This document shows, in pieces, positions 13,204-26,119 of a stretch of 35,246 bases of DNA. The stretch's first letter is position 1, and each line of letters opens with the position of its first letter. The notes under the pieces are model-generated. The model saw nothing but the letters and a program-made list of their open reading frames with translations. It was not told where the DNA came from and ran no database searches. The position numbers were made by a program, and so were the translations under genes. Source of the stretch: an uncultured Gammaproteobacteria bacterium (GTDB taxonomy: Bacteria; Pseudomonadota; Gammaproteobacteria; Arenicellales; CALHMG01); NCBI GenBank assembly GCA_938034705.1, contig CALHMG010000269.1, positions 1 to 35,246 of the forward strand, given 5' to 3'.

Positions 13204-14025
13204 ATGATCGATCGCGGCGCCCAGTTTGAATTAACCCGCAACCGGCCCTGGTGGCGCGGCACGACCTTCGACATCGTCTCCTTCATACTGGGCTGTGTCT
13301 TTCTCGCCTGGATTGTCTATCGCGGCGCCGCGAGCATGGGTTACAACTGGCAGTGGTATCGCGTCCCCCAGTACATCTACAAAGTCGTTGATGGTGAGTT
13401 TATCTGGGGAGCCTTGATGCGCGGGCTCATGGTGACGCTGGAGATCGCGCTGTATAGCGCGGTCCTGATGATAGTCATCGGTCTGGTCACAACCCTGCTG
13501 CGCCTGTCCAGGTCGTTCTCGGGCAACCTGCTCGCGACGATCTATCTGGAAATCATCCGTAACACACCGCTGCTCGTGCAGATGTTTGTGTTCTATTTTG
13601 TTATCGGTCCAATTTTTGGCATCGATCGCTTCTGGGTCGCTGTGCTTGGGCTGGCATTTTTTGAAGGGGCGTTTGCGGCCGAGATCATTCGAGCGGGAAT
13701 CCTGTCGGTGCCCAAGGGGCAGTGGGAGGCCGCGAATGCGACGGGTCTTGGACCCGTTGCGATTTACAGACGGGTCGTGCTGCCGCAGGCCATTCCGTTG
13801 ATGCTGCCACCGATGACCGGGTTGCTGGTCAACCTAATAAAAAACTCTGCCATCGTCAGCGTAATTGCCGTCTTCGACTTAACGACCGAAGGGCGGAATA
13901 TCATTGCCGATACGTACATGAGCTTCGAAATCTGGTTCACGGTAGCGCTGATTTATCTCAGTATTACGATACCGTTATCGCTGTTCGTTGGCATGCTGGA
14001 ACGGCGGGTACAACAACGCTCATGA
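13204..14025 (+). CDS. Amino-acid-type ABC importer permease (HisM/GltK-like), first subunit
   Basis: 273 residues, inner-membrane permease of the polar amino acid uptake (PAAT) family. After an N-terminal helix and a periplasmic loop come the core helices. The ATPase-contacting EAA loop is clear: EIIRAGILSVPKGQWEAA followed by LPQAIPLMLPP and NLIKNSAIVS. It is the first gene of a five-gene operon (permease, binding protein, permease, ATPase, deacylase). It starts only 53 bp from the divergent desaturase gene, so the operon promoter must lie in that gap or within the desaturase's 5' end. Confidence 0.93.
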   Translation: MIDRGAQFELTRNRPWWRGTTFDIVSFILGCVFLAWIVYRGAASMGYNWQWYRVPQYIYKVVDGEFIWGALMRGLMVTLEIALYSAVLMIVIGLVTTLLRLSRSFSGNLLATIYLEIIRNTPLLVQMFVFYFVIGPIFGIDRFWVAVLGLAFFEGAFAAEIIRAGILSVPKGQWEAANATGLGPVAIYRRVVLPQAIPLMLPPMTGLLVNLIKNSAIVSVIAVFDLTTEGRNIIADTYMSFEIWFTVALIYLSITIPLSLFVGMLERRVQQRS

Positions 14026-14108
14026 GATTTACCAGTTTTATCGCAAGGCATTTGTCTTTTCAATCCAACAAAACATTCATGACTAAAACACAGCAAAGGG
14101 GACTTTCA

Positions 14109-14948
14109 ATGAATCGTTTCAAACATTTACTGCTGGCGGTTGCCGCGACGGCGATGTTGTCGCCGGTCGTGTCGTCAGCGCAGGGCACGCAGCAGGCGCT
14201 GTCCAAGGAAAGCGCGCTTGAGGCCATCAAAAAGCGCGGCACGCTGAAAGTGGGCATGGCCACATTCGTGCCATGGGCGATGCGTAACAAGGCCGGCGAT
14301 CTCATCGGGTTTGAGATCGATGTCGCGACCAAAGTTGCCGAAGACATGGGCATGAAGGTTGAGTTTGTTCCAACCGCGTGGGACGGAATTATTCCGGCCC
14401 TGATCGCAGGAAAATTCGACGTCATCATTGGTGGCATGAGTATCACGGCCAAACGAAACCTGACCGTGAACTTCACCGTCCCCTACGCGCACTCTGGACA
14501 GGGTGTTGCCGCCAACATCAAACTGGCCAAAGACCTCAAGTGGCCGGATGACTACAACAGCAGCAAAGTGACTTTTGCGTGCCGCCGCGGAGCGACGCCG
14601 TGCACAGCGGTTGCAAAGTTCTTTCCAAAAGCGACGGTGCGACAGTTTGATGACGATGCCCAGGCCTTTCAGGAAGTCATTAACGGTAACGCCCATGCGG
14701 TCGTGTCCAGCCAGCCCAAGCCAAACTTCTATCGCATCGACAATCCGGACAAGATTTTTGATCCGGCCGACGGTGCGAACCTGACCAAGGGCGACGAAGC
14801 GTTTGCGCTGCGTAAGGGTGACCCGGATTCACTGAACTTCTTCTCCAACTGGATCACGGTTAACACCAGTAACGGCTGGCTTGCCGAGCGTCACAAGTAC
14901 TGGTTTGGCTCACGTGACTGGGCTGATCAGGTCGAGATGAAGCAATAG
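14109..14948 (+). CDS. Amino-acid-type periplasmic binding protein (SBP family 3)
   Basis: 279 residues. The start is the ATG at 14109, which has AAGGGGA about 7 nt upstream and opens directly into a signal peptide (MNRFKHLLLAVAATAML, cleavage near SSAQG). The mature domain opens with the family signature KRGTLKVGMATFVPWA, then GFEIDVATKVAEDMG. SITAKRNLTVNF includes the arginine that usually binds the substrate alpha-carboxylate. Two cysteines in FACRRGATPC may form a disulfide. It is the receptor for the two permeases around it. Its place between the permease genes is unusual, since in most PAAT operons it is at one end. The ligand may be an N-acylated or otherwise modified amino acid, given the deacylase at the operon's end. 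Confidence 0.93.
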   Translation: MNRFKHLLLAVAATAMLSPVVSSAQGTQQALSKESALEAIKKRGTLKVGMATFVPWAMRNKAGDLIGFEIDVATKVAEDMGMKVEFVPTAWDGIIPALIAGKFDVIIGGMSITAKRNLTVNFTVPYAHSGQGVAANIKLAKDLKWPDDYNSSKVTFACRRGATPCTAVAKFFPKATVRQFDDDAQAFQEVINGNAHAVVSSQPKPNFYRIDNPDKIFDPADGANLTKGDEAFALRKGDPDSLNFFSNWITVNTSNGWLAERHKYWFGSRDWADQVEMKQ

Positions 14949-15033
14949 TCTTCGGCGCATCCGCGCAGCTTGCGACCGTCAAACGGGCGGTCGCAACGCC
15001 TGCTCGGTGTCTGTTGATGCTGGCACGCCTTAA

Positions 15034-15930
15034 GTGATTTCGCCGCATACCAAAATCAAGCGCACTGTCGGTGCGCTTGATGTCGTTATACTGGTGCTGG
15101 CGCTCGCGCTCGGAGCCTATGTCTACTACCGCGTCGACACGGTGCTGGCCTACAACTGGAGCTGGGATTTTCTGCCGGGATATTTCATCCGTCAGGATGA
15201 GCAAAGCGGTAGCTGGATCGCCAATATCCTGCTGATCGGGCTCGTTACAACGATCAGGCTCGCGTTCTGGAGCATGATTCTCGCCGCCATTCTTGGCGCG
15301 ATTCTTGGCGTCATGCGCACGTCCACAAGACTGCTGCCAAGACTCTTCAGTCGCGTATACGTAGAGCTGATTCGTAACGTACCGCCACTGGTTTTCTTTT
15401 TCATATTCTATTTCTTTATCAGCAGTCAGCTGATGCCGGCGCTCGGTATCTCCGACTTCGCACGAAACATGTCACCCGAGAACGAAAAGTGGGTGTCGAT
15501 ACTGTTTGGTCAACCAAAGCTGCTCGAGAACGTGATTTCGGGAATCATCTGTCTCGCGTTCTTCGAGGCTGCCTACATCGCCGAAATCGTCAGAGCGGGT
15601 ATCGAAGCGGTGCCCAAGCAGCAATACGAGGCCGGACTGAGCGTTGGCCTTTCGAGATTTTCCCTGCTCAAGTCAGTGGTCATGCCCCAGGCGTTGCAAA
15701 AGGTCCTGCCGCCTCTGGCCAACCAGTTCATCACGTTGATCAAGGATTCCAGCATCGTTTCGCTCATTTCGATTCAGGAGTTGACCTTCCTCGGTCAGGA
15801 GGTGGCGGTATCTACGTCAAAGTTCTTCGAAACCTGGATATTTGTAGCGGTGCTCTACTTTGTTATCTGCTACGCGCTTGCGCTGCTGTTCGGTTTTCTG
15901 GAGCGTCGTGGCAGCAGCAGTCAACGTTGA
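15034..15930 (+). CDS. Amino-acid-type ABC importer permease, second subunit
   Basis: 298 residues, partner of the permease at 13204. The EAA loop is [18 protein letters not shown] followed by [11 protein letters not shown] and [10 protein letters not shown]. It carries a longer periplasmic segment between the first two helices and an insertion around [13 protein letters not shown]. The start is GTG 15034, directly preceded by an in-frame TAA, so it is the first possible start; no good ribosome site is seen. The two permeases are clearly paralogous and should form the heterodimeric channel. Confidence 0.92.
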
Positions 15931-15943
15931 CGGGTGCAACAAG

Positions 15944-16672
15944 ATGATTGAGTTTCGTTCTGTCAACAAGTGGTATGGCGACTTCCATGTGCTCAAGGAT
16001 ATCGACCTCGATATCGAAGCAGGTCAGCGTGTTGTTATCTGCGGTCCCTCCGGCTCTGGGAAATCGACGCTGATCAGATGCATCAACCGTCTGGAAGAAC
16101 ACCAGCAAGGAGAAATTCTGGTCGAAGGCGAGGTGCTGGGTGACAACCCGGTAGCCAACGCGCTGATTCGCCGCAAGGTGGGCATGGTGTTCCAGCAGTT
16201 CAATCTCTTCCCGCATCTCACCGCGCTCGATAACTGCACGCTTGGACCGATCAAGGCGCTGGGCATGTCGCGCGCCGAGGCGCAGGAGCGCGCCCGGGCG
16301 CAACTCGAACGCGTAAAGATTCCAGAGCAGGCCGACAAGTTCCCACAGGCGCTGTCCGGCGGTCAGCAGCAGCGCGTGGCGATCGCGCGCTCACTTTGCA
16401 TGGAGCCAGACGTGATGTTGTTTGACGAGCCTACGTCTGCCCTGGATCCCGAGATGATCGCAGAAGTGCTCGATACGATGATTGAACTTGCCGATTCGGG
16501 CATGACCATGATCTGCGTAACGCATGAAATGGGTTTTGCGAAAACCGTTGCTGATACGATTATGTTTATGGATGAAGGCCGAATTGTTGAAGCCGCAGCG
16601 CCAGAAAAGTTCTTCAACAGCCCTGACAGTGCGCGAACGCGAAAATTTCTCGATCAGATACTGATTCATTAG
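15944..16672 (+). CDS. Amino-acid-type ABC importer ATPase (GlnQ/HisP-like)
   Basis: 242 residues, the cytoplasmic ATPase of the importer. It shows Walker [11 protein letters not shown]-loop [12 protein letters not shown], signature [15 protein letters not shown], Walker [14 protein letters not shown] and H-loop VTHEMGFA, all intact. The start is ATG 15944, 13 nt after the permease stop, where the conserved [12 protein letters not shown] begins. The frame is open further upstream inside the permease gene but that extension has no family resemblance. Confidence 0.95.
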
Positions 16673-16690
16673 GTCAGCGAGTCCCCGGAC

Positions 16691-17698
16691 ATGACAATAA
16701 ATCTCGATGCCTCGCGGCTGAAAACCGACGTCGACTTTGCCCGTCAGGGTCGCCAGACAGGCGATTTTCGGTTGCGACCGTCGGATAACAGCAAGGCTCT
16801 GGGCTATCACCCGGTGCCGGTATTTTGTCTGCAAAACGGCGAAGGCCCGACGCTTGTGGTCACAGGCGGTACCCACGGTGACGAGTTTGAAGGGCCCGCT
16901 GCAATACTGAGGCTGATGCATCGCCTCGATCTCGAAAAACTGAACGGCCGGCTGATCATGTTTCCGGCACTCAATGCACCGGCCGTTAAGGCGTCGCTGC
17001 GTTGTTCACCGCTGGATGACGGTAACCTGAACCGGGCGTTTCCGGGAGATGCCGACGGCTCGCCAACCGAGCAAATCGCGTATCTGATCGAACACTGCAT
17101 ACTGCCCGGGGCGGACGCAGCCATTGATATTCATTCCGGCGGTCGCGCGAGCGAATTTGTGCCGCTTTCGATGTACGTGCCGTCGACTGGTGAACTTGGC
17201 GAGCGCAACCGTGCGCTCGCGGATGCTTTTAGAGCGCCGTACTGCTGGGTCATGGGCGTCGGCAATGACAACAGAACCGTCAACTCGGCTGCGGAGCGAC
17301 AGGGTGTACCGATGTTTGCCACAGAACTCGGAGGAGGCGGCAACGTCAATACGGAGTATGTGCGTCTTGCCTGTGACGGGATACTCAGAGTGCTGCAGTC
17401 TCTCGGGATGTGGCAGGCGCCTCTGGTCGCGGCAACGCAGGCGACGACCTATTTCAGAATTCCAGCCACCGACTTTACGCTCTTTGCGCCGCGCGACGGC
17501 TTGTTCGTGCCTGCGAAAACGCCCGGCTCCAGATTCTCGAAGGGCGAAGCGGTCGGCGATATCTACAGTATCTTTGAGCCCGAGCGCGAGCCCTGCACCC
17601 TGGTTGCGCCGCATTCGTCGTTAATGATCAGTCAGACCCGGTACGGTCAGGTTGAGCGCGGTGATTTTCTGATGCAGCTGTCGGACGAAATCTCCTGA
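16691..17698 (+). CDS. Zinc-dependent N-deacylase, succinylglutamate desuccinylase/aspartoacylase family (DoeB-like)
   Basis: 335 residues, a cytoplasmic metallo-hydrolase of the AstE/ASPA branch of the M14 carboxypeptidase clan. Zinc ligands are H62 and E65 in GGTHGDEFEG and H148 in DIHSGG. The substrate-binding DDGNLNRAFPGD (110-120) and the catalytic glutamate E212 in ATELGGGG are present. A C-terminal beta domain (about 250-330) resembles a lipoyl-like cap. Overall it looks most like DoeB, which removes the acetyl group from N-acetyl-2,4-diaminobutyrate in ectoine breakdown, but the ectoine hydrolase gene (doeA) is not in the window. Being 18 nt after the ATPase gene, it probably acts on what the importer brings in: uptake of an N-acylated amino acid and release of the free one. 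Confidence 0.88.
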   Translation: MTINLDASRLKTDVDFARQGRQTGDFRLRPSDNSKALGYHPVPVFCLQNGEGPTLVVTGGTHGDEFEGPAAILRLMHRLDLEKLNGRLIMFPALNAPAVKASLRCSPLDDGNLNRAFPGDADGSPTEQIAYLIEHCILPGADAAIDIHSGGRASEFVPLSMYVPSTGELGERNRALADAFRAPYCWVMGVGNDNRTVNSAAERQGVPMFATELGGGGNVNTEYVRLACDGILRVLQSLGMWQAPLVAATQATTYFRIPATDFTLFAPRDGLFVPAKTPGSRFSKGEAVGDIYSIFEPEREPCTLVAPHSSLMISQTRYGQVERGDFLMQLSDEIS

Positions 17699-17714: not shown

Positions 17715-19589
17715 TCAGGGCAGTGAACCACTCTGGGTTTTGTACATGAACGGAACCGAAGCGTTGCGGTGCCGCCACATCACCTGATAGCGAAACCGCT
17801 TTGAGGTAAACGCATAAGCTGGAATGCGAAACGTCAGAGATTTGTCGCTCTTCGAGTACTGTCCGTTGAAATGGTCATCCGGCTCATTGCTGACGGCGGA
17901 GTCGTTTACGATTCGAACGCTGAATCTGCCGTCGTCATAGTTTTGCGAATCGCCATCGAATTCCACGCGCAACAGGTGCGAGCCATTGTCGCGAGGTTCA
18001 ACGGTTGCGGCGCCATGGGCAGGAAACGAGTACATGGACCTGGCGGCAGCGGCCGCCATCAGGGCCTGCCACCGATTATTGACGTCAACGAGTGAACAAT
18101 CGATCGAAGCCAGTACCCGGGTCCAGAGATTCTCCCCTGATATTCCGAATGGAAGTTCCAGTTCGCGAAAAGACCGAATGGTGTCGCCGATTGCGTCGGC
18201 GCCACAGGAGTCGACCAGAGCTTCGGTCCAGAGGTTCCCGAGTCCGTACAGCAACGTGACGTCGTATTTGCTGGCGACCCTGGCACCGTTGGCGAGCTCG
18301 GCGAACGTGAAGTTTTCTCCCGCTACACTGATTGATGCGAGGACGGCATCCAGTTCACGGCGTGAGTCGCCGCCAATTACCTGATGCGCGATGTACTCCG
18401 CTGACCCTTCGGTAAAAAACTGAACCGCGTGCGCGTGCCGACGCATGCCTCGGTCAGACTCGGTACCCTGAAAAACATGCACGGTCTCATGGGCGAGCAC
18501 AAAGGCATGACCGATGCGCGTATCTGGCCGTGAAATGTCCATCCTGAAGGACTTCCATCGAGCGAGTCCTGCGAAATGCTCGCTGGTCTGGGTAAGATCA
18601 ACACGAATCACCGGTTCAGTCTCCGCGTTGATCGACGCGCTGACGTCTTCGTAGAGTGTGTCGGCCTGTCTGATCAACATGCGTGCCGGCGCCTGTGCCC
18701 GCTCGGGGAAGACGAATCTGAAGTAGTGGGTCTGAAGTGACGCAACGGGCCCGGTATATCGGGTCTCGGCTGGGTTTTTCTGGGCAAATTGAGTACCGGC
18801 AAGAAGCGCCAGCCCAAACGCAGCGGCGAGCCAGCCGAGCGTTTTCAATTTACCGGTCTTCTGGCTGCTTTGCCGGCTGAGCCCCCATGAATCCGCGTGA
18901 CTCCAGTGCCTGTATGCAAGCCACAGCGCGATCAGAGCGAGGACACACTGGAACCCGATTGCGGCCCAGGGCAGCACCAGGGTTTCACCCGCATACTCAA
19001 CCCGGAAGAGTTCCAGAGGATCCATAAAAGAGTGCAGACGCGCTCGATCGAGTAGGATCAGGACGACAACCGACGCGAAGATCAACACGAAGCCAAAGGT
19101 CCGCATCGTAGACAGCCACATGCCGTAAGCGAGGTAAATCGTCAGGGCGATGACGTCACGGAAGAAAAATGTAGCCGTTAGTGCCGGATACAATCCGCCC
19201 GTTAACGAAGAAGAGTTTGCGCCGACAACCAGCATCCAACGGGCGTATCCGATCACGGCCACACCCGTTACGACAATGATGCCTGCTACCAGTTTGGCCT
19301 TGAATATCGTAAGTCTTGAGACGGGCATTGCCCGAAGAAAGTTGATGGTTCCTGAGTCGTGTTCGTTGGGGTAAAGACTGTAGGCGGTTATAAACGAAAC
19401 GAACATGACCGAAATGACAGAATAGGAACGGTTTCCCGGTTCGCACCCGATCGAGCAGTCGGACGCCCAGGTTGCAAAGCCAAACGATGAGCTTAGAGTA
19501 TTCGCCAGAAATTCAATGACCGTCAAAGCCGCGAACAGCGCGAAGATAGGCAGCAGCTGTCGAAGTTCTTTGCGAATAAGCGCGGTCAC
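17715..19589 (-). CDS. ABC-2 permease fused to an extracytoplasmic gluzincin (HExxH) peptidase-like domain
   Basis: 624 residues. Residues 1-230 form an ABC-2-type permease of about six helices, with NEHDSGTINFLRAMPVSR (75-92), the usual motif after helix 2. A further helix at about 248-269 carries the rest across the membrane. Residues 280-510 look like a zinc metallopeptidase of the MA clan: HETVH at 367-371 in LAHETVHVFQG, then E394 in FTEGSAEY, 23 residues on, in place for the third zinc ligand. After a helical part comes a beta-rich C-terminal domain (about 520-624). It overlaps the upstream permease gene by 4 nt and is the last gene of the operon ATPase, permease, permease. ABC-2 permeases joined to M1-type aminopeptidases are known; this domain looks shorter and unlike M1 (no GxMEN motif seen). 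Transported or cleaved substrate unknown. Confidence 0.85.
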   Translation of the reverse strand: MTALIRKELRQLLPIFALFAALTVIEFLANTLSSSFGFATWASDCSIGCEPGNRSYSVISVMFVSFITAYSLYPNEHDSGTINFLRAMPVSRLTIFKAKLVAGIIVVTGVAVIGYARWMLVVGANSSSLTGGLYPALTATFFFRDVIALTIYLAYGMWLSTMRTFGFVLIFASVVVLILLDRARLHSFMDPLELFRVEYAGETLVLPWAAIGFQCVLALIALWLAYRHWSHADSWGLSRQSSQKTGKLKTLGWLAAAFGLALLAGTQFAQKNPAETRYTGPVASLQTHYFRFVFPERAQAPARMLIRQADTLYEDVSASINAETEPVIRVDLTQTSEHFAGLARWKSFRMDISRPDTRIGHAFVLAHETVHVFQGTESDRGMRRHAHAVQFFTEGSAEYIAHQVIGGDSRRELDAVLASISVAGENFTFAELANGARVASKYDVTLLYGLGNLWTEALVDSCGADAIGDTIRSFRELELPFGISGENLWTRVLASIDCSLVDVNNRWQALMAAAAARSMYSFPAHGAATVEPRDNGSHLLRVEFDGDSQNYDDGRFSVRIVNDSAVSNEPDDHFNGQYSKSDKSLTFRIPAYAFTSKRFRYQVMWRHRNASVPFMYKTQSGSLP

Positions 19590-21505
19590 TTGATGGTCAC
19601 CCGCTGCGCACCCAGCTGTACCGGCCGCGAAAAGAGATCGTTTTCGTAGTACAGCGCAACGTAGGCTCGATCACCGGTTGCGTAGGGGACTCGGGTGCGG
19701 TCTGGTGATCCGTCGGTGGCGCAACTGATCGTGACCTCTTCGATGCCGTCCAGCGTTACGAAGTTCCGCGTCGGACCGGTCTTGGCGTGACGGAGCCTGC
19801 AGTGCCCATCTTTGCTCTGGGTCGGAGTGATTTCGCCAACAAGCTGAGTCACGAGTCGCTTGTAGCCGTTGTGCTCAACGTCGGACTGCACAGAGATCTT
19901 GGCAGCAGGGACCGAGTCGACCAGGGTTTTGATCCGAGGTTCCGCGGAAACCGTTTCCAGCCATTGTTGCCAACGAGCGGAAAACTGATCGAAGTCCAGG
20001 CCGGTGGCATCGTTAAAGCGTTGTCGTGACGAGTTGCGCGCGTCGATAAAACTGGACAGGTAGTTGTTCTTCACCGGTTGCGTGAGAAACTGTCTGCCGA
20101 GACGATAAATGCCTTCTTCGCCGATTTCGCTTTCAAGAAATACCAGCGCCGAATAAGCCAGCGCATCAGCGGCAGCCGCCCCTCGGATATCGACTATCTG
20201 ATCATATTGATCAATCAAGCTGGTTACTTCACCGTGAATCGCCACCGAAATGCTAGCCAGTGCCAACAGTTCGTCAGTCACCGCCTGCTTTTGTTCGCCA
20301 GAAAGGTGGCGGGTCGCCCACCACCACGACTGGGCGTCTGTGACCCAGTGATGGGGTTCATACATCGCCCGATTGTTCGTCAGCTGCTGGAAAATGCCGT
20401 GAACGGCGACAGATTCGACGAGCGCCATACCCATAGGTGAGAGCCCGGCGATGTGCGCATCTAAAGATACTTCAGAGGAAACGTTCAGTCGCTGTACGTC
20501 GCGGAACAGGTTTGCTGAATAGCGAATTCTTAGCAGAGGCAGTTCGTCCACGCCGAGGTTGTGCGAGATTGATTCCAGTGTCGTTGAAAGCCTGGCGAGC
20601 AATGACGTCGCTTCTTTGCGGTTTTCCTCGTGTTCGTAATAGACGTAGATGTCGGGTGTTTCGTTCTGGACCATCTGTGTTGCTGACGGAAGCATTGGCA
20701 ACTCGTCAACGTCGTTTACGGCTATCGCAACGACCAGCGAATAGGTCATCAGGACGAAGCACACGATCGTGATATCGATTCTCGTCATCGGTACAGCCAG
20801 CGTGTCGATCAATGTGCCTTCACGTGCCCACGCGAGGGCGAAGCCCGAGGCTGAAATGGCGATGCCCAGCACAACGGTGACAAGAATATCGCTCCAGGGC
20901 ATCACGTCACGCTCATAGACCAGAAGCTCGCTATCGAGCAGTCGCAGGGGTGCGAAACTGCCTGTCACCTGGTCGAACTTGTTCAAAATCAAATAGCCCA
21001 CAAACAGCAGGACATACAACAGCAATCGCAGTCGGCCACACAGACTTACAAAAAACGCGATGCTCCAGACAAGCAGCGAAATCGCAATAACGCGAACCCC
21101 GATACCTGCAACGTAGGGTGCGTCCAGGTCATCACCGACCCCGGCGTGCAAAAGGCCCACCGCGATCGTGACCAGGCCGATTACCACGACCAGCGCAAGG
21201 CCAAGCGCATACTTTTCAACCAGCATCACCCAGGGATGAATGGGGAGGGCCGTCAGAAAATGACGGGTCTTGAGAATCAGTTCTCGTGCGACAAGAATGT
21301 TGCCGACAATCGCCGCGCACAACGGCAGGATCGACTTGATCCCCGCAGCGACAATCGCCATCGACCCCTGGCCATAGGCGGACGTATCGTAAGTCCGTGC
21401 CATCAGCATCAGGATGACCGCGGTCGCTCCAACCAGAATCATCAGATTCGGGCCATTTTCTCGCAGGTCCTTTGACAGCATCGCTGCCACAGACGAACGA
21501 ATCAT
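19586..21505 (-). CDS. ABC-2 permease fused to a degenerate peptidase-like domain
   Basis: 639 residues, built like the following gene's product: about six helices (1-230), a seventh at about 245-263, then a large extracytoplasmic domain and a beta-rich end (about 545-639). Residues 66-92 hold the ABC-2 motif (GNILVARELILKTRHFLTAL). In the place of the zinc site stands ESVAVHGIFQQL (364-375): the second histidine survives (H369) but the first His and the Glu are gone, and the third-ligand segment reads VTDAQSWWWA where the partner has FTEGSAEYIA. I therefore read it as an inactive partner domain. It starts within the end of the ATPase gene (4-nt overlap) and ends within the start of the active permease gene (4-nt overlap), implying fixed stoichiometry. 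Confidence 0.83.
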   Translation of the reverse strand: MIRSSVAAMLSKDLRENGPNLMILVGATAVILMLMARTYDTSAYGQGSMAIVAAGIKSILPLCAAIVGNILVARELILKTRHFLTALPIHPWVMLVEKYALGLALVVVIGLVTIAVGLLHAGVGDDLDAPYVAGIGVRVIAISLLVWSIAFFVSLCGRLRLLLYVLLFVGYLILNKFDQVTGSFAPLRLLDSELLVYERDVMPWSDILVTVVLGIAISASGFALAWAREGTLIDTLAVPMTRIDITIVCFVLMTYSLVVAIAVNDVDELPMLPSATQMVQNETPDIYVYYEHEENRKEATSLLARLSTTLESISHNLGVDELPLLRIRYSANLFRDVQRLNVSSEVSLDAHIAGLSPMGMALVESVAVHGIFQQLTNNRAMYEPHHWVTDAQSWWWATRHLSGEQKQAVTDELLALASISVAIHGEVTSLIDQYDQIVDIRGAAAADALAYSALVFLESEIGEEGIYRLGRQFLTQPVKNNYLSSFIDARNSSRQRFNDATGLDFDQFSARWQQWLETVSAEPRIKTLVDSVPAAKISVQSDVEHNGYKRLVTQLVGEITPTQSKDGHCRLRHAKTGPTRNFVTLDGIEEVTISCATDGSPDRTRVPYATGDRAYVALYYENDLFSRPVQLGAQRVTIK

Positions 21506-22449
21506 CTGGCGCTTCCGACAGTGGCGATAAAAACATCCTCAAGCGACATCTCTTCGCGGCGCCAGCCGCCATGGGGAATAGCTTCGGTCACGGGCGTTTC
21601 GTTAAAACTGATTGTCACGAGATCACGGCCGTCCTTTTGAGTGTGGCGCAATACTGTGAACCCCCTGTGATCAATAAACTGTGGCACCATCGGTGCGTCT
21701 GTCTGAACGTCGGTTGCCACTGGGTTGGAGAACGTGGCGACGGTTCTGACAAGATTTTGCAGCGGCCCGTCAAAGATCATAGAGCCTTCCTCGAGCACCC
21801 CGACGCGCGTGGCGACGGCCTCGATATCGTCCATAACGTGAGTGGAGAAGAAGACCGAGGCGTCTCCGGAGAGCGCTTGTTCGTTCACAAGGTCAAGGAA
21901 CTCCCGGCGCGCTACAGGATCCATGCCTGCCGTGGGCTCGTCCAGCACGAGAATCTCGGGTTGAATCGCCAGGGCCATGGAAAGCGCCAGTCGGGCTTTC
22001 ATGCCGCCGGAAAAGTCGCCGATCCTGCCGTGGGAAGGCAGCTCAAATCGCTTCATCAAGTCGCTGTACCGTTCGCGACTCCATCGTGGGTACATTCCGC
22101 TCACAAAGTTCTGGAGGTCCGCGCACGTCATCCACGGATAGAAGTGCTGCTCCTGGGCCACATAGCCGACGCGTTGTCTTCCGCGAACCAGGGCGCGGCG
22201 ACCGGTCTCACCAAACAATTCGACGGTGCCCGCGTCCTGACGATGAATGCCCATCAGGATTCTGATGGTCGTCGATTTTCCTGCGCCGTTACGCCCGAGG
22301 AATCCATAAACTTCGCCGGGCTTGACCGACAGCGTCATGCCGCGCAGTACATTGTTTGGGCCAAACGATTTATGCAGAGAATCGAGGGAAAAAACCGGTT
22401 GTGTGTCCTGCGTCATGCGCTCGCACGGTGTCGTCGATCGAGCTTTCAT
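21502..22449 (-). CDS. ABC-2 exporter ATPase subunit
   Basis: 315 residues from the ATG at 22449; an in-frame ATG at 22416 (MTQDTQPVF) is equally possible and neither has a good ribosome site. Walker A is GRNGAGKST (52-60), the signature is FSGGMKARLALS (LSGG with F for L), and Walker B is ILVLDEPTAGMDP with H-loop STHVMDD. About 70 C-terminal residues form an accessory domain ending SLEDVFIATVG, usual in CcmA/YadG-type exporters. It is the first gene of the three-gene exporter operon. The 220 bp upstream, to the end of tctA, hold its promoter. Confidence 0.93.
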   Translation of the reverse strand: MKARSTTPCERMTQDTQPVFSLDSLHKSFGPNNVLRGMTLSVKPGEVYGFLGRNGAGKSTTIRILMGIHRQDAGTVELFGETGRRALVRGRQRVGYVAQEQHFYPWMTCADLQNFVSGMYPRWSRERYSDLMKRFELPSHGRIGDFSGGMKARLALSMALAIQPEILVLDEPTAGMDPVARREFLDLVNEQALSGDASVFFSTHVMDDIEAVATRVGVLEEGSMIFDGPLQNLVRTVATFSNPVATDVQTDAPMVPQFIDHRGFTVLRHTQKDGRDLVTISFNETPVTEAIPHGGWRREEMSLEDVFIATVGSAR

Positions 22450-22669: not shown

Positions 22670-24319
22670 TTATGTACTGGTGGCAGATCGACGCAGTCGG
22701 TAGACGAGATAGCCAGCCAGTACCACACACAAAACTGCGAGGACGGGTCGAACGCCGCCGCCCATCATGGTCAGCGGCAGCGAAACAGCGGCCAGAAGCG
22801 CGGGCGCGTAGTAACTCGTCCATTTTGCGCCGGCGCTGCGCTGACTCTGGAAGTACGGGAAGGCCGCTGAAAACAAAGCGACTATCAGGAAGAACAACGC
22901 CCAGGGTCTTGTCACGAAGTGATGCAGTGACTCGTCGATCGCCATCGCGCGGCTCAGGTTGAGCTCCGCAATGTCTCCCAGCACCACACCCAGGATCATC
23001 GGTGCCAGCGGGAAACCAAACTGACGCATCGCAAAACCGATAATGCCGAACCACAACAGCGTCCAGATATCGAAAGTGATGTTGTTCAGCGCAAATACGC
23101 CAATGGAGGCAAAGCCGAGTATGACGGACGCCAGCATGTACATGCGAATACGCGTCACCAGGACAAACACTCGCAGAACCACCGACTGCAGGGCGATCAT
23201 GATGAAGTTGGCGCAGAAAAAAGCGATAAAGATCGAGTACGCGAGCACCGGTTCTTCAGCGATAAAGCTCGGGCTTGGAACAACGTCATGCATGAGCAGG
23301 GCGCCAAGCAGGATCGCGGCCGTTACGTCGCCCGGAATGCCAAGTGCCATCAGAGGCGTCAACGCGCCGCCTTCCACGGCGTTGTTGGAGCTTTCAGGAG
23401 CGATAACGCCTTCCGGTACACCGGTACCGAACTCTTCGGGCTTGCTTGATGCTTTCTTGGCCTGGTCGTACGCAAGAATGTTTGCGATGGAGCCGCCAGC
23501 GCCAGGCAGTATGCCTACGAACATGCCGATGAAAGAAGATCGGATAAGCGTGGGCCAGCGTTTGATAATGGCTTTGATCGCACGAAGATGTTCGATGCGA
23601 ACGCGGACGTTGCCGCTCATTGACAGCGATCTGCGTGCCTTGTCCGGATCACGGACATCCGACAGCAGCTGGCTGAACGCGAACAATCCGATCAGGACGG
23701 CAATAAAGTCAAAGCCGCCGAGGAGTTCGTCGTTGCCGAAGTTAAACCGGGCCATTCCGGCGGCGTCGTCTTCACCAATCGTTTTTACGAAGAGGCCAAG
23801 CGCGCCGGCCAGTAGTCCCTTCACAAGGTTTTTGCCCGCAAGGCTCGCCGTCACCGTGAGGGCGAACATGACCAGCATGAAAAAATCCCACGGCTGAAAC
23901 TCAAGGCCCACGCGCGCAAGCTGTGGCGCAAACAGAACCAGCATTACGGCCGAAAACATGCCACCAAAAAACGACGACCAGACGCCCAGTCCCAGCGCAA
24001 AGCCAGGTTCGCCCTTGCGAGCCATGGGAAATCCGTCGAACGTGGTCGCAACGGACGAGGGTGTGCCAGGTATTCCTGTGAGAATGCCGGCCATCAATCC
24101 GCCGGAGAGTCCGCCGACGAGCACGCTGATCATGGTTGCGGCGCCCTGGGACGCTTCCATGCTGAACGTAAACGGCAGTGTCAGTACAACCGCCATCGCA
24201 ATGGTGAACCCGGGAATCGAGCCAGCAAGAAGACCCGCGGCAACGCCGATGGTCATGTAGACCAGAGTTTTGACGTTGCCGATTTCGGCAAACGCACCTA
24301 GCAGGTTTTCGGCAAACAT
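22670..24319 (-). CDS. tctA: Tripartite tricarboxylate transporter, large membrane subunit
   Basis: 549 residues with about 12 hydrophobic segments. It carries the two TctA signature repeats: GLLAGSIPGFTIAMAVVLTLPFTF near residue 30 and GILPGAGGSIANILAYD around 270. GIPGTPSSVATTFDG and ALGIPGDVTAAILLGAL are also typical. TctA is the transport channel of TTT systems, which use a periplasmic receptor (TctC) and an ion gradient to import carboxylates. It is the last gene of tctC-tctB-tctA, 3 nt after tctB. The C-terminus (about 40 residues with two helices) makes it somewhat longer than the common 500. The substrate is not fixed by the sequence. Confidence 0.95.
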   Translation of the reverse strand: MFAENLLGAFAEIGNVKTLVYMTIGVAAGLLAGSIPGFTIAMAVVLTLPFTFSMEASQGAATMISVLVGGLSGGLMAGILTGIPGTPSSVATTFDGFPMARKGEPGFALGLGVWSSFFGGMFSAVMLVLFAPQLARVGLEFQPWDFFMLVMFALTVTASLAGKNLVKGLLAGALGLFVKTIGEDDAAGMARFNFGNDELLGGFDFIAVLIGLFAFSQLLSDVRDPDKARRSLSMSGNVRVRIEHLRAIKAIIKRWPTLIRSSFIGMFVGILPGAGGSIANILAYDQAKKASSKPEEFGTGVPEGVIAPESSNNAVEGGALTPLMALGIPGDVTAAILLGALLMHDVVPSPSFIAEEPVLAYSIFIAFFCANFIMIALQSVVLRVFVLVTRIRMYMLASVILGFASIGVFALNNITFDIWTLLWFGIIGFAMRQFGFPLAPMILGVVLGDIAELNLSRAMAIDESLHHFVTRPWALFFLIVALFSAAFPYFQSQRSAGAKWTSYYAPALLAAVSLPLTMMGGGVRPVLAVLCVVLAGYLVYRLRRSATST

Positions 24320-24322
24320 ATT

Positions 24323-24829
24323 CTAAAAGCGCCCGATGATCTCGCCGGGAGGCAGCGTCACTTCAAGCCCGAACGTAAAGAGAGCCCACATGCCACCCAC
24401 AGTGCAGATGGAAATCAGTGCGTGAAGCGCGACCTGCTTTGGCGACCAGCCGCCGAGCACGTTCAGTAGCAGAAACACGAACGCCAGACCGCCGAGCAAC
24501 ATGCCGAGCCAGGGCATCGAAAGAAGGTAGAAGAAAAACAGCACAAAGCAGGCAATGACGTTGCGCCAGTAGCCGAAAAATCCAGCGCGTTTGCGTTCTT
24601 CCATCAACACAAGCTCGGCCTCGGTCGGCTCCGGGGCGCCAGCCCGTATGGACTGGAAAAGATAGAGCAGTGACAGAAACGTCATTGCGCCAAGAATCAC
24701 ACGGGGCCAGGTCGCCGGGCTCAAAACGCCATAGTTTGGCTCGCGAATCTGAAAGCTCGCTGCGATAAAGATTCCACAGGCAAGCAGCATGCAGAGCGCA
24801 ACAATCACATCTTTATTTATTCGCGACAT
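24323..24829 (-). CDS. tctB: Tripartite tricarboxylate transporter, small membrane subunit
   Basis: 168 residues with four hydrophobic segments (about 8-26, 40-60, 90-122, 130-155). That topology and the sequence PATWPRVILGAMTFLSLLYL are typical of TctB, whose role beside TctA is structural. It lies between tctC (104-bp spacer with two hairpins) and tctA (3 nt). Confidence 0.9.
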   Translation of the reverse strand: MSRINKDVIVALCMLLACGIFIAASFQIREPNYGVLSPATWPRVILGAMTFLSLLYLFQSIRAGAPEPTEAELVLMEERKRAGFFGYWRNVIACFVLFFFYLLSMPWLGMLLGGLAFVFLLLNVLGGWSPKQVALHALISICTVGGMWALFTFGLEVTLPPGEIIGRF

Positions 24830-24847
24830 AGCCGACCACTGCTGGTT

Positions 24848-24870
24848 GCTTCAAGCGATCGACTTGAAGC
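24848..24870 (-). repeat. 8-bp inverted repeat just before tctB
   Basis: GCTTCAAG (24848-24855) and CTTGAAGC (24863-24870) pair perfectly around 7 nt, 19 nt before the tctB start. It may shape tctB translation or protect a processed 5' end. Confidence 0.4.
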
Positions 24871-24897
24871 GTGAGTTGGGCATTGGGGAGAAATCAA

Positions 24898-24927
24898 GCG
24901 GGCAGGGGACAGGCGTCACCTGCCCGC
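24898..24927 (-). terminator. Terminator/attenuator hairpin between tctC and tctB
   Basis: GCGGGCAGG (24898-24906) and CCTGCCCGC (24919-24927) form a perfect 9-bp stem, extendable by GAC/GTC inside. It starts 7 nt after the tctC stop, and on the transcribed strand it is followed by TTGATTTCT, a broken T-run. This would allow partial termination, giving more binding protein than membrane subunits. Confidence 0.65.
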
Positions 24928-24933
24928 ATTGGA

Positions 24934-25896
24934 TTACTTCTTGTACATACCGATGGCGATAGCCACTTTTTCATAGTCGGCGTACGTCGCGTCGGCTTTG
25001 GCGCGATAGTCTGCCGGACCCTGCCAGGACACATCGGTACCTTTGGCGTCGAGCTGTTTCAGGAGTTCGGCATCTTCGGCAGCTTTTTTGAACTGCTGAG
25101 ACCACATCTCAACGACGTCGGCTGGCGTTCCCTTGGGAGCAACGATACCGCGCTCAAGCGCGAAACTCAGGTCTACGCCTTTCTCTTTCAGAGTCGGCAT
25201 GTCAGGAAGGTGCTTGGATCGCTCATCCGCGGCAATAGCGAAGCCTTTCAGCTCACCGGACTCGAAATATTTCTTGCCCGACGCAACGTTCAGCGAACCG
25301 AGATCGATCGCGCCGGAAAGCAGGGCCGTCATGCGCTCGCGAGTACCGTCGTAGGGTACGAATTTGAAATCGACACCCATCTTCTGACCCAGCAGCAGCC
25401 AGATAAACTGGCTGGTTGAGCCAAACGTGGCGCCGGTCTTGACGGCACCCGGGTTGGCCTTGAGGTGCTCGGCAAACTCTTCGAACGTGTTGTAAGGAAC
25501 GTTGGCATTCGCGCCAACGATGTCCGGCGTCGAAGTCAGATTCGCTACGGTTTCGAAGTTGTCGTAGTGAAAGTCGATACGGCCGTTCAGAAAACTGGTA
25601 AATGCAGACTGATGGATGGCGAACAGCGTGCAGCCGTCGGGCTTGGCTTTGGCAGCTTCTTTCGCGCCTTTGTTGCCGCCCTGACCAGGAACGGTCACGA
25701 CTTTGATATTGGGCTTCATGCCCAGTTCTTTCATCCGCTTTTCAAAGATGGAGAAAATGATGTGAGTGCCACCACCGGCCTTCCAGGGGACAATCAGGTT
25801 TGCGGTTTTGCAGGGAACTTCTGCGGCTTGCGCGGACACGGTGCAAATGGCGAGAAGCGGTAGCGCCAGCAGGGCGCGGGTCAGAAATCTGGTCAT
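24934..25896 (-). CDS. tctC: Tripartite tricarboxylate transporter periplasmic receptor (Bug family)
   Basis: 320 residues from ATG 25896, chosen because GGAGGA lies 9 nt upstream and a signal peptide (MTRFLTRALLALPLLA, cleavage near AQAAE) begins there. The frame is open further upstream to 26046 without a leader. The mature protein has the Bug/TctC fold, with NLIVPWKAGGGTH, VTVPGQGGNKGA and VPYDGTRERMTALLSGAIDLG. In most Bug proteins the first motif is PxxPGGxxD with a conserved Asp; here His45 stands there and Lys-Ala replaces the Pro, so the ligand may be unusual. It is the first gene of the operon. Confidence 0.93.
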   Translation of the reverse strand: MTRFLTRALLALPLLAICTVSAQAAEVPCKTANLIVPWKAGGGTHIIFSIFEKRMKELGMKPNIKVVTVPGQGGNKGAKEAAKAKPDGCTLFAIHQSAFTSFLNGRIDFHYDNFETVANLTSTPDIVGANANVPYNTFEEFAEHLKANPGAVKTGATFGSTSQFIWLLLGQKMGVDFKFVPYDGTRERMTALLSGAIDLGSLNVASGKKYFESGELKGFAIAADERSKHLPDMPTLKEKGVDLSFALERGIVAPKGTPADVVEMWSQQFKKAAEDAELLKQLDAKGTDVSWQGPADYRAKADATYADYEKVAIAIGMYKK

Positions 25897-26119
25897 GTGA
25901 AGCTTTCCTCCGTCGTTTTCAGCGGTGGTTGCGTAGTGCACGCACCGAACGTGTCTGACGTTACACGAATCACGAAGGCGACTTGGCGTCGATCCACGCG
26001 CGTGCCACGGTAGAGGAAGTGTGGTACGCGTCCCACTATGGTGCACGCGCGGGATCAGCTTTTTGTTTGAATGACCTCACACGTCCCTGTGGGTCTGGGA
26101 GGTTCAATTCACAATCCCG

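What the first reader, a model, noticed from the sequence alone, without database searches (positions are those of the whole stretch)
17715..22449. ABC-2 exporter whose two permeases carry one intact and one disabled gluzincin domain
A three-gene, fully overlapping operon encodes an ATPase and two permeases of the same architecture: about six helices, a seventh crossing, then a 350-residue extracytoplasmic domain. One keeps HETVH (367-371) and the downstream E394; the other has ESVAVH and VTDAQSWWWA at the matching places. Duplication followed by loss of one active site suggests an obligate heterodimer in which a peptidase (or a binding pseudo-enzyme) acts on what is exported, or senses something outside. 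ABC-2 permeases fused to M1 aminopeptidases are known to me, but a paired active/inactive set with an MA-type domain is not one I can name. No precursor peptide gene is visible nearby.
Basis: partly seen in the sequence, partly recalled or inferred. Interest (0 to 1): 0.85.

Follow-up and report, generated by a model that had tools for sequence, protein, structure and literature searches.

The report
ABC transporter with live-and-dead peptidase pair
This is a three-gene membrane machine in which an ATP-burning motor is paired with two sister membrane proteins, each carrying an outside peptidase-like domain, one with a working active site and one dead, and the same live/dead pairing is kept in at least four groups of gammaproteobacteria, which suggests that the pair works as one unit.

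Summary
Window 22449-17715 (-) encodes an ABC ATPase (T), an ABC-2 permease whose outer domain lacks the zinc motif (A) and an ABC-2 permease whose outer domain keeps it (B). Homologous T-A-B operons occur in Granulosicoccaceae (32 of 48 genomes), a Massilia-type genus (12 of 62), Steroidobacterales (3 of 137), and once among 109 genomes of the window's own order. In 45 aligned B proteins HExxH, the downstream Glu and a Tyr are invariant; none of 42 A proteins keeps HExxH at that site. A and B form two separate clades, so one duplication and one loss precede the split of these lineages. A's outer domain is still under purifying selection. AlphaFold2 models of both outer domains match M1/M61-type gluzincin peptidases; B's membrane half matches NosY. 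The closest named family, TCDB 3.A.1.145 (ABC-2 permease fused to one M1 domain), differs in gene layout and in domain sequence and coexists with T-A-B in the same Massilia and Steroidobacter genomes. Most likely T2AB is an obligate heterodimer: an ATP-coupled extracytoplasmic metallopeptidase with a pseudoenzyme half. Heterodimer, substrate, export and peptidase activity are not shown.

The parts
21502..22449 (-). T: ABC-type ATPase, 315 aa
   Evidence: Pfam ABC_tran 1.5e-28; best NCBIfam models PmtA, DrrA, NodI, all below their cut-offs. Walker A, signature, Walker B and H-loop intact in 41/42 homologues; the other is cut by a contig end.
19586..21505 (-). A: ABC-2 permease with catalytically dead gluzincin-like outer domain, 639 aa (permease about 1-270, outer domain about 275-639)
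   Evidence: AF2 mean pLDDT 81.3; top PDB match aminopeptidase N 4qpe, prob 1.00. HExxH absent at the site in all homologues; E383 42/42, W387 41/42, D390 35/42.
17715..19589 (-). B: ABC-2 permease with intact gluzincin outer domain, 624 aa (permease about 1-275, outer domain about 280-624), GTG start
   Evidence: Pfam ABC2_membrane_5 2.7e-6, above its cut-off; AF2 mean pLDDT 80.6; PDB matches M1 aminopeptidases, LTA4 hydrolase, M61 and NosY.
18477..18491 (-). codons of HETVH (B residues 367-371)
   Evidence: H367, E368, H371 each 45/45.
18408..18410 (-). codon of E394, predicted third zinc ligand (HExxH-x22-E)
   Evidence: 45/45.
18246..18248 (-). codon of Y448, placed like the M1 transition-state tyrosine (Y-x-x-G)
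   Evidence: 45/45; the matching A position is Glu or Asp in 27 of 42. The comparison with M1 is from own knowledge of that family.

Best explanation
T, A and B form one complex (two T, one A, one B) in the inner membrane. It is an ABC-2/NosFY-type motor with two gluzincin-type domains on the outer face: B is a zinc metallopeptidase, A an inactive partner that binds, positions or gates the substrate. ATP binding and hydrolysis by T changes the arrangement of the two outer domains and so couples the motor to peptide handling, by cutting or holding a peptide as it emerges through the permease or as it is taken from the periplasm. Shown by computation: operon, homology of A and B, conservation of the live/dead pair, predicted fold of both domains, intact ATPase motifs. 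Inferred: heterodimer, zinc binding, peptide cleavage, coupling to ATP. Unknown: substrate and direction.
For: Fixed T-A-B order with overlapping or closely spaced genes in every locus complete enough to tell, in window, Granulosicoccaceae, Massilia and Steroidobacterales. Catalytic set H367/E368/H371/E394/Y448 invariant in B, lost in A. A and B are each one side of one branch (support 100), with similar internal branching, and pairwise identities of the two outer domains correlate at 0.97. A outer domain dN/dS 0.095-0.145 in eight close pairs, against 0.048-0.100 for B in seven, so A is kept, not decaying. Fold matches for both domains; NosY for the permease half of B. Two cysteine pairs, C462/C498 in B and C569/C595 in A, are present in Granulosicoccaceae and the window and missing as pairs in the Massilia/Steroidobacter rows, as expected for disulfides outside the cytoplasm.
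Against: No complex could be modelled (the tool folds one chain). No substrate, precursor or processing partner was found nearby. The GxMEN exopeptidase motif of M1 enzymes is not seen at the matching strand (GLAxWK instead), so the type of cleavage is unknown. HExxH conservation fits zinc-dependent hydrolysis of other substrates too. dS is near or above 1 in many of the pairs used.
Confidence: 0.6

Rival explanations
1. Mechanotransmission without transport: as proposed for NosDFY, MacB or FtsEX (own knowledge), nothing crosses the membrane and ATP cycles move or switch the outer peptidase pair, which acts on a periplasmic or envelope protein.
For: NosY is the solved ABC permease that appears among the B matches (TM 0.54-0.64 by target length). 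No exported-substrate gene found nearby.
Against: A NosY-like fold is shared with real ABC-2 exporters, so fold alone does not decide. No partner protein known.
Confidence: 0.35
2. Peptide resistance: the complex pulls antimicrobial or signalling peptides off the membrane and B degrades them.
For: Patchy distribution and a self-contained operon with changing neighbours fit an accessory fitness module. T scores best with peptide-exporter and drug-exporter ATPase models, but below their cut-offs.
Against: No consistent regulator or resistance gene beside it; 32 of 48 Granulosicoccaceae keep it, more like a lineage trait.
Confidence: 0.2
3. Split form of the known peptidase-fused exporters (TCDB 3.A.1.145): same system with the fused 12-13-helix permease divided in two.
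For: Both are ABC ATPase plus two ABC-2 permease halves plus gluzincin-fold domain; such fusions occur next to an ATPase gene in the same genomes.
Against: Two outer domains, not one; outer domains not clearly alike by profile (best E 7.4e-4 for B, 0.06 for A, against 1.7e-13 for the fusion's domain versus M1 as positive control); different zinc spacing; both systems in one genome.
Confidence: 0.12
4. A's outer domain is a decaying relic of no consequence.
For: Active-site residues vary in A (positions 365, 366); A's outer domain evolves somewhat faster than B's.
Against: dN/dS about 0.1, invariant E383 and near-invariant W387, domain kept in every complete operon.
Confidence: 0.02

Closest known systems
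TCDB 3.A.1.145, ABC-2 permease fused to C-terminal peptidase M1 (Myxococcus xanthus Q1D520, PMC3924187)
   Same: ABC-2 membrane part with a gluzincin-type zinc peptidase domain, ATPase gene next door (seen)
   Different: One 1200-aa chain with 13 helices and a single M1 domain, against two chains of about 630 aa each with its own domain, one dead; outer domains not clearly alike by profile
NosFY of NosDFY (PDB 7qba, 7znq)
   Same: Permease fold of the membrane half
   Different: NosY has no outer peptidase domain; it is paired with NosD (own knowledge)
M1 and M61 gluzincin aminopeptidases (ERAP1, IRAP, LTA4H, PepN; 7xyo)
   Same: Fold of both outer domains; HExxH plus downstream Glu and Y-x-x-G tyrosine in B
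   Different: x22 in place of the M1 x18 spacing, no GxMEN, no Pfam Peptidase_M1 match at cut-off, fused to a permease
Mitochondrial processing peptidase alpha/beta (own knowledge)
   Same: Paired active and inactive metallopeptidase halves
   Different: M16 fold, soluble, no ABC motor; only an analogy

Membership tests
ABC-2 type ABC transporter | ABC ATPase with intact Walker A/B, signature, H-loop | tested here: met
   41/42 intact, one truncated by contig end; Pfam ABC_tran
ABC-2 type ABC transporter | six-helix ABC-2 permease domain | tested here: met
   ABC2_membrane_4 in all 31 B members at E up to 0.1, B over cut-off for ABC2_membrane_5; A only weak by itself (0.81) but homologous to B's membrane half at E 1.9e-21
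ABC-2 type ABC transporter | transport of a substrate | not testable with these tools
   needs an assay
TCDB 3.A.1.145 | single chain with two fused permease halves and one C-terminal M1 domain | tested here: not met
   two separate genes, each with its own outer domain
TCDB 3.A.1.145 | outer domain of peptidase family M1 | tested here: not met
   no Pfam M1 hit at cut-off; profile comparison with the fused M1 domain weak, positive control strong
Gluzincin (clan MA(E)) peptidase, B | HExxH plus downstream Glu ligand | tested here: met
   45/45, spacing x22
Gluzincin (clan MA(E)) peptidase, B | gluzincin fold | tested here: met
   Foldseek prob 1.00, E 1.9e-4 to about 1e-3, to M1 and M61 structures; TM-scores low because whole chains were compared, and the active-site geometry was not measured
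Gluzincin (clan MA(E)) peptidase, B | zinc binding and proteolysis | not testable with these tools
   needs purified domain
Gluzincin pseudoenzyme, A | same fold, catalytic residues lost, domain retained under selection | tested here: met

The most novel reading that the evidence does not exclude
T-A-B is an undescribed class of ATP-driven, membrane-embedded metallopeptidase machine built as an obligate enzyme/pseudoenzyme heterodimer, in which the motor regulates or feeds proteolysis outside the cytoplasmic membrane.
Probability: 0.4. Interest if true: 0.75.

Novelty: new variant of a known kind. Interest (0 to 1): 0.55.

Why it matters
Heterodimeric ABC systems with one degenerate half are known at the ATPase level (own knowledge); here the asymmetry sits in outer peptidase domains. 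If the pair works as one unit, it is a bacterial case of a pseudoenzyme kept through deep divergence as the partner of its live sister, coupled to an ATP motor, and it gives a clean system in which to test how ABC motors act on extracytoplasmic proteins. The outer domains also look like a gluzincin family with no Pfam model, and the substrate could be a new exported or periplasmic peptide. Named strains exist (Massilia brevitalea CGMCC 1.10731 and Steroidobacter agaridevorans SA29-B).

Tried and rejected
Searching plasmids with the Massilia B protein: no match. Search of solved structures by sequence with B: nothing credible. P0001 alone across 60 relatives and the class sample found only weak permease-only hits beyond two Granulosicoccaceae, so an alignment was needed. 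An alignment of three across 399 genomes of the phylum found only the window itself. A possible substitute metal site in A from invariant H369/E383/H386/D390 within Granulosicoccaceae was dropped: H369, H386 and D390 vary in Massilia, only E383 stays. A shared partner gene: none across lineages, only clade-level synteny. The A fold matches to Brr2 helicases were set aside as chance (TM about 0.07 by target length). Papers on paired ABC-2/peptidase systems: none found in the library; only PMC3924187 for 3.A.1.145. The library is open-access only, so absence there is weak evidence of novelty.

Full report
What is there. On the minus strand, window 22449-17715 holds three genes with 4-base overlaps: an ABC ATPase (T, 315 aa), an ABC-2 permease of 639 aa (A) and an ABC-2 permease of 624 aa (B).

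Relatives. B alone found two full-length relatives among 369 genomes of the class. One of them, G315, lies on a contig whose length matches a named Granulosicoccaceae record. In that family 32 of 48 genomes have B. The named-genome scan added Massilia (L103, L104) and Steroidobacter agaridevorans (L105). A seven-row alignment then gave 12 of 62 genomes in the Massilia-type genus (one of them, G854, only a C-terminal fragment, and one, G887, a frame-broken copy), 3 of 137 in the order of Steroidobacter, 3 of 196 in the wider family of Massilia, two already known, 3 of 369 in the class, and in the window's own order only the window plus a weak permease-only match. The distribution is therefore patchy. 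Every locus complete enough to tell has the order T-A-B.

The live/dead pattern. In 45 aligned B proteins H367, E368, H371, E394 and Y448 are invariant, and the spacing is HExxH-x22-E (44 of 45 by pattern; in the 45th, L140_B, the pattern stopped at an earlier Glu-Gly, while the alignment shows the same spacing). In 42 aligned A proteins none has HExxH at the site. At the matching positions the first His is Thr, Ser, Ala or Glu, the catalytic Glu is most often Val, the second His survives in 31, the third ligand is Asp in 35, and the tyrosine is Glu or Asp in 27. The only HExxH string in any A protein lies elsewhere in the chain. Three later triads, L157-L159, agree.

One duplication. A and B are homologous over nearly their whole length: profile comparison E 5.8e-22 over 583 columns and E 5.3e-13 over 530 columns with a larger but narrower set. 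Outer domains alone give E 4.2e-6 over 299 columns, or 8.2e-8 over 343 columns with a different alignment setting; reversed and shuffled controls give 0.3-0.56. A maximum-likelihood tree of 85 rows puts all A rows on one side and all B rows on the other of one branch with support 100, and the branching inside the two halves is similar. The tree is a quick build with long branches, so the exact place of window, L065 and L105 is unsure. The duplication and the loss in A thus most simply came before the split of these lineages, and the pair has since travelled together.

A is kept. In close pairs the A outer domain has dN/dS 0.095-0.145 in eight comparisons and the B outer domain 0.048-0.100 in seven; many dS values are near or above 1, so these are rough. 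A is freer than B but clearly constrained. E383 is 42/42 and W387 41/42.

Fold. AlphaFold2 gives mean pLDDT 80.6 for B and 81.3 for A with the same order of secondary structure in the outer domain: two strands, helix, three strands, the helix of the HExxH site, the helix of the downstream acidic residue, further helices, and a beta-rich end. B matches M1 aminopeptidases, LTA4 hydrolase and an M61 enzyme with probability 1.00, and NosY for the membrane half. A matches aminopeptidase N first, with LTA4 hydrolase and IRAP also at probability 1.00, among chance hits to helicases. TM-scores are low since whole chains were compared. Pfam and NCBIfam give no peptidase family at cut-off.

Sidedness. 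The outer domain follows a further hydrophobic helix after the ABC-2 helices. Two cysteine pairs appear and vanish as pairs between lineages (B 462/498, A 569/595), which fits disulfides outside the cytoplasm. This is inference, not a topology measurement.

Surroundings. No neighbour gene family is shared between the window and the other lineages' loci next to the operon; flanks are ordinary and lineage-specific. No precursor peptide was recognised; ORFs under 60 aa were not surveyed.

Known systems. The closest named family is TCDB 3.A.1.145, described for Myxococcus Q1D520: a 1200-aa fusion of a 13-helix ABC-2 part with one peptidase M1 domain (PMC3924187). Three proteins of that kind occur in the Massilia and Steroidobacter genomes themselves, next to an ATPase gene. 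Their M1 domain matches true M1 proteins at E 1.7e-13, while T-A-B outer domains match it only at 7.4e-4 (B) and 0.06 (A), and true M1 at 2.3e-4 (B) and 1.5e-3 (A). T-A-B is thus not a member of that family by gene layout and by domain family, though it may work in a similar way.

How it likely works. Best supported is a T2AB heterodimer in which B cuts and A holds or gates, with ATP driving the change. The alternative that nothing is transported and the motor only moves the outer domains (as proposed for NosDFY) cannot be excluded. Peptidase activity, zinc, heterodimer and substrate remain to be shown.

Noticed in passing
L122 3770-7348 (-), L123 4010-7660 (-), L124 2133-5714 (+): Fused ABC-2/M1 proteins of 1193-1217 aa (TCDB 3.A.1.145 type) with HEMAH/HEVAH beside an ABC ATPase, in Massilia and Steroidobacter genomes that also hold T-A-B.
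   Followed up: partly
L149 2286-6893 (-): T-A-B in one Massilia-type genome (G887) is broken into pieces by frame changes in both A and B; either a decayed copy or sequencing error.
   Followed up: no
L011 4935-7616 (+) and 11 other Granulosicoccus loci: A GGDEF/EAL-type signalling protein (by reading) lies just downstream of B on the opposite strand in 12 loci, only within that clade.
   Followed up: no
L010 6419-7408 (+), L011 13254-14222 (-): An NYN-like protein (by reading) lies just upstream of T in 7 Granulosicoccaceae loci.
   Followed up: no
window 22670-26046 (-) and 13204-17698 (+): By reading only: a tripartite tricarboxylate transporter-like set upstream on the same strand, and a polar amino acid ABC transporter followed by a succinylglutamate desuccinylase-like gene that ends 17 bases from B.
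   Followed up: no
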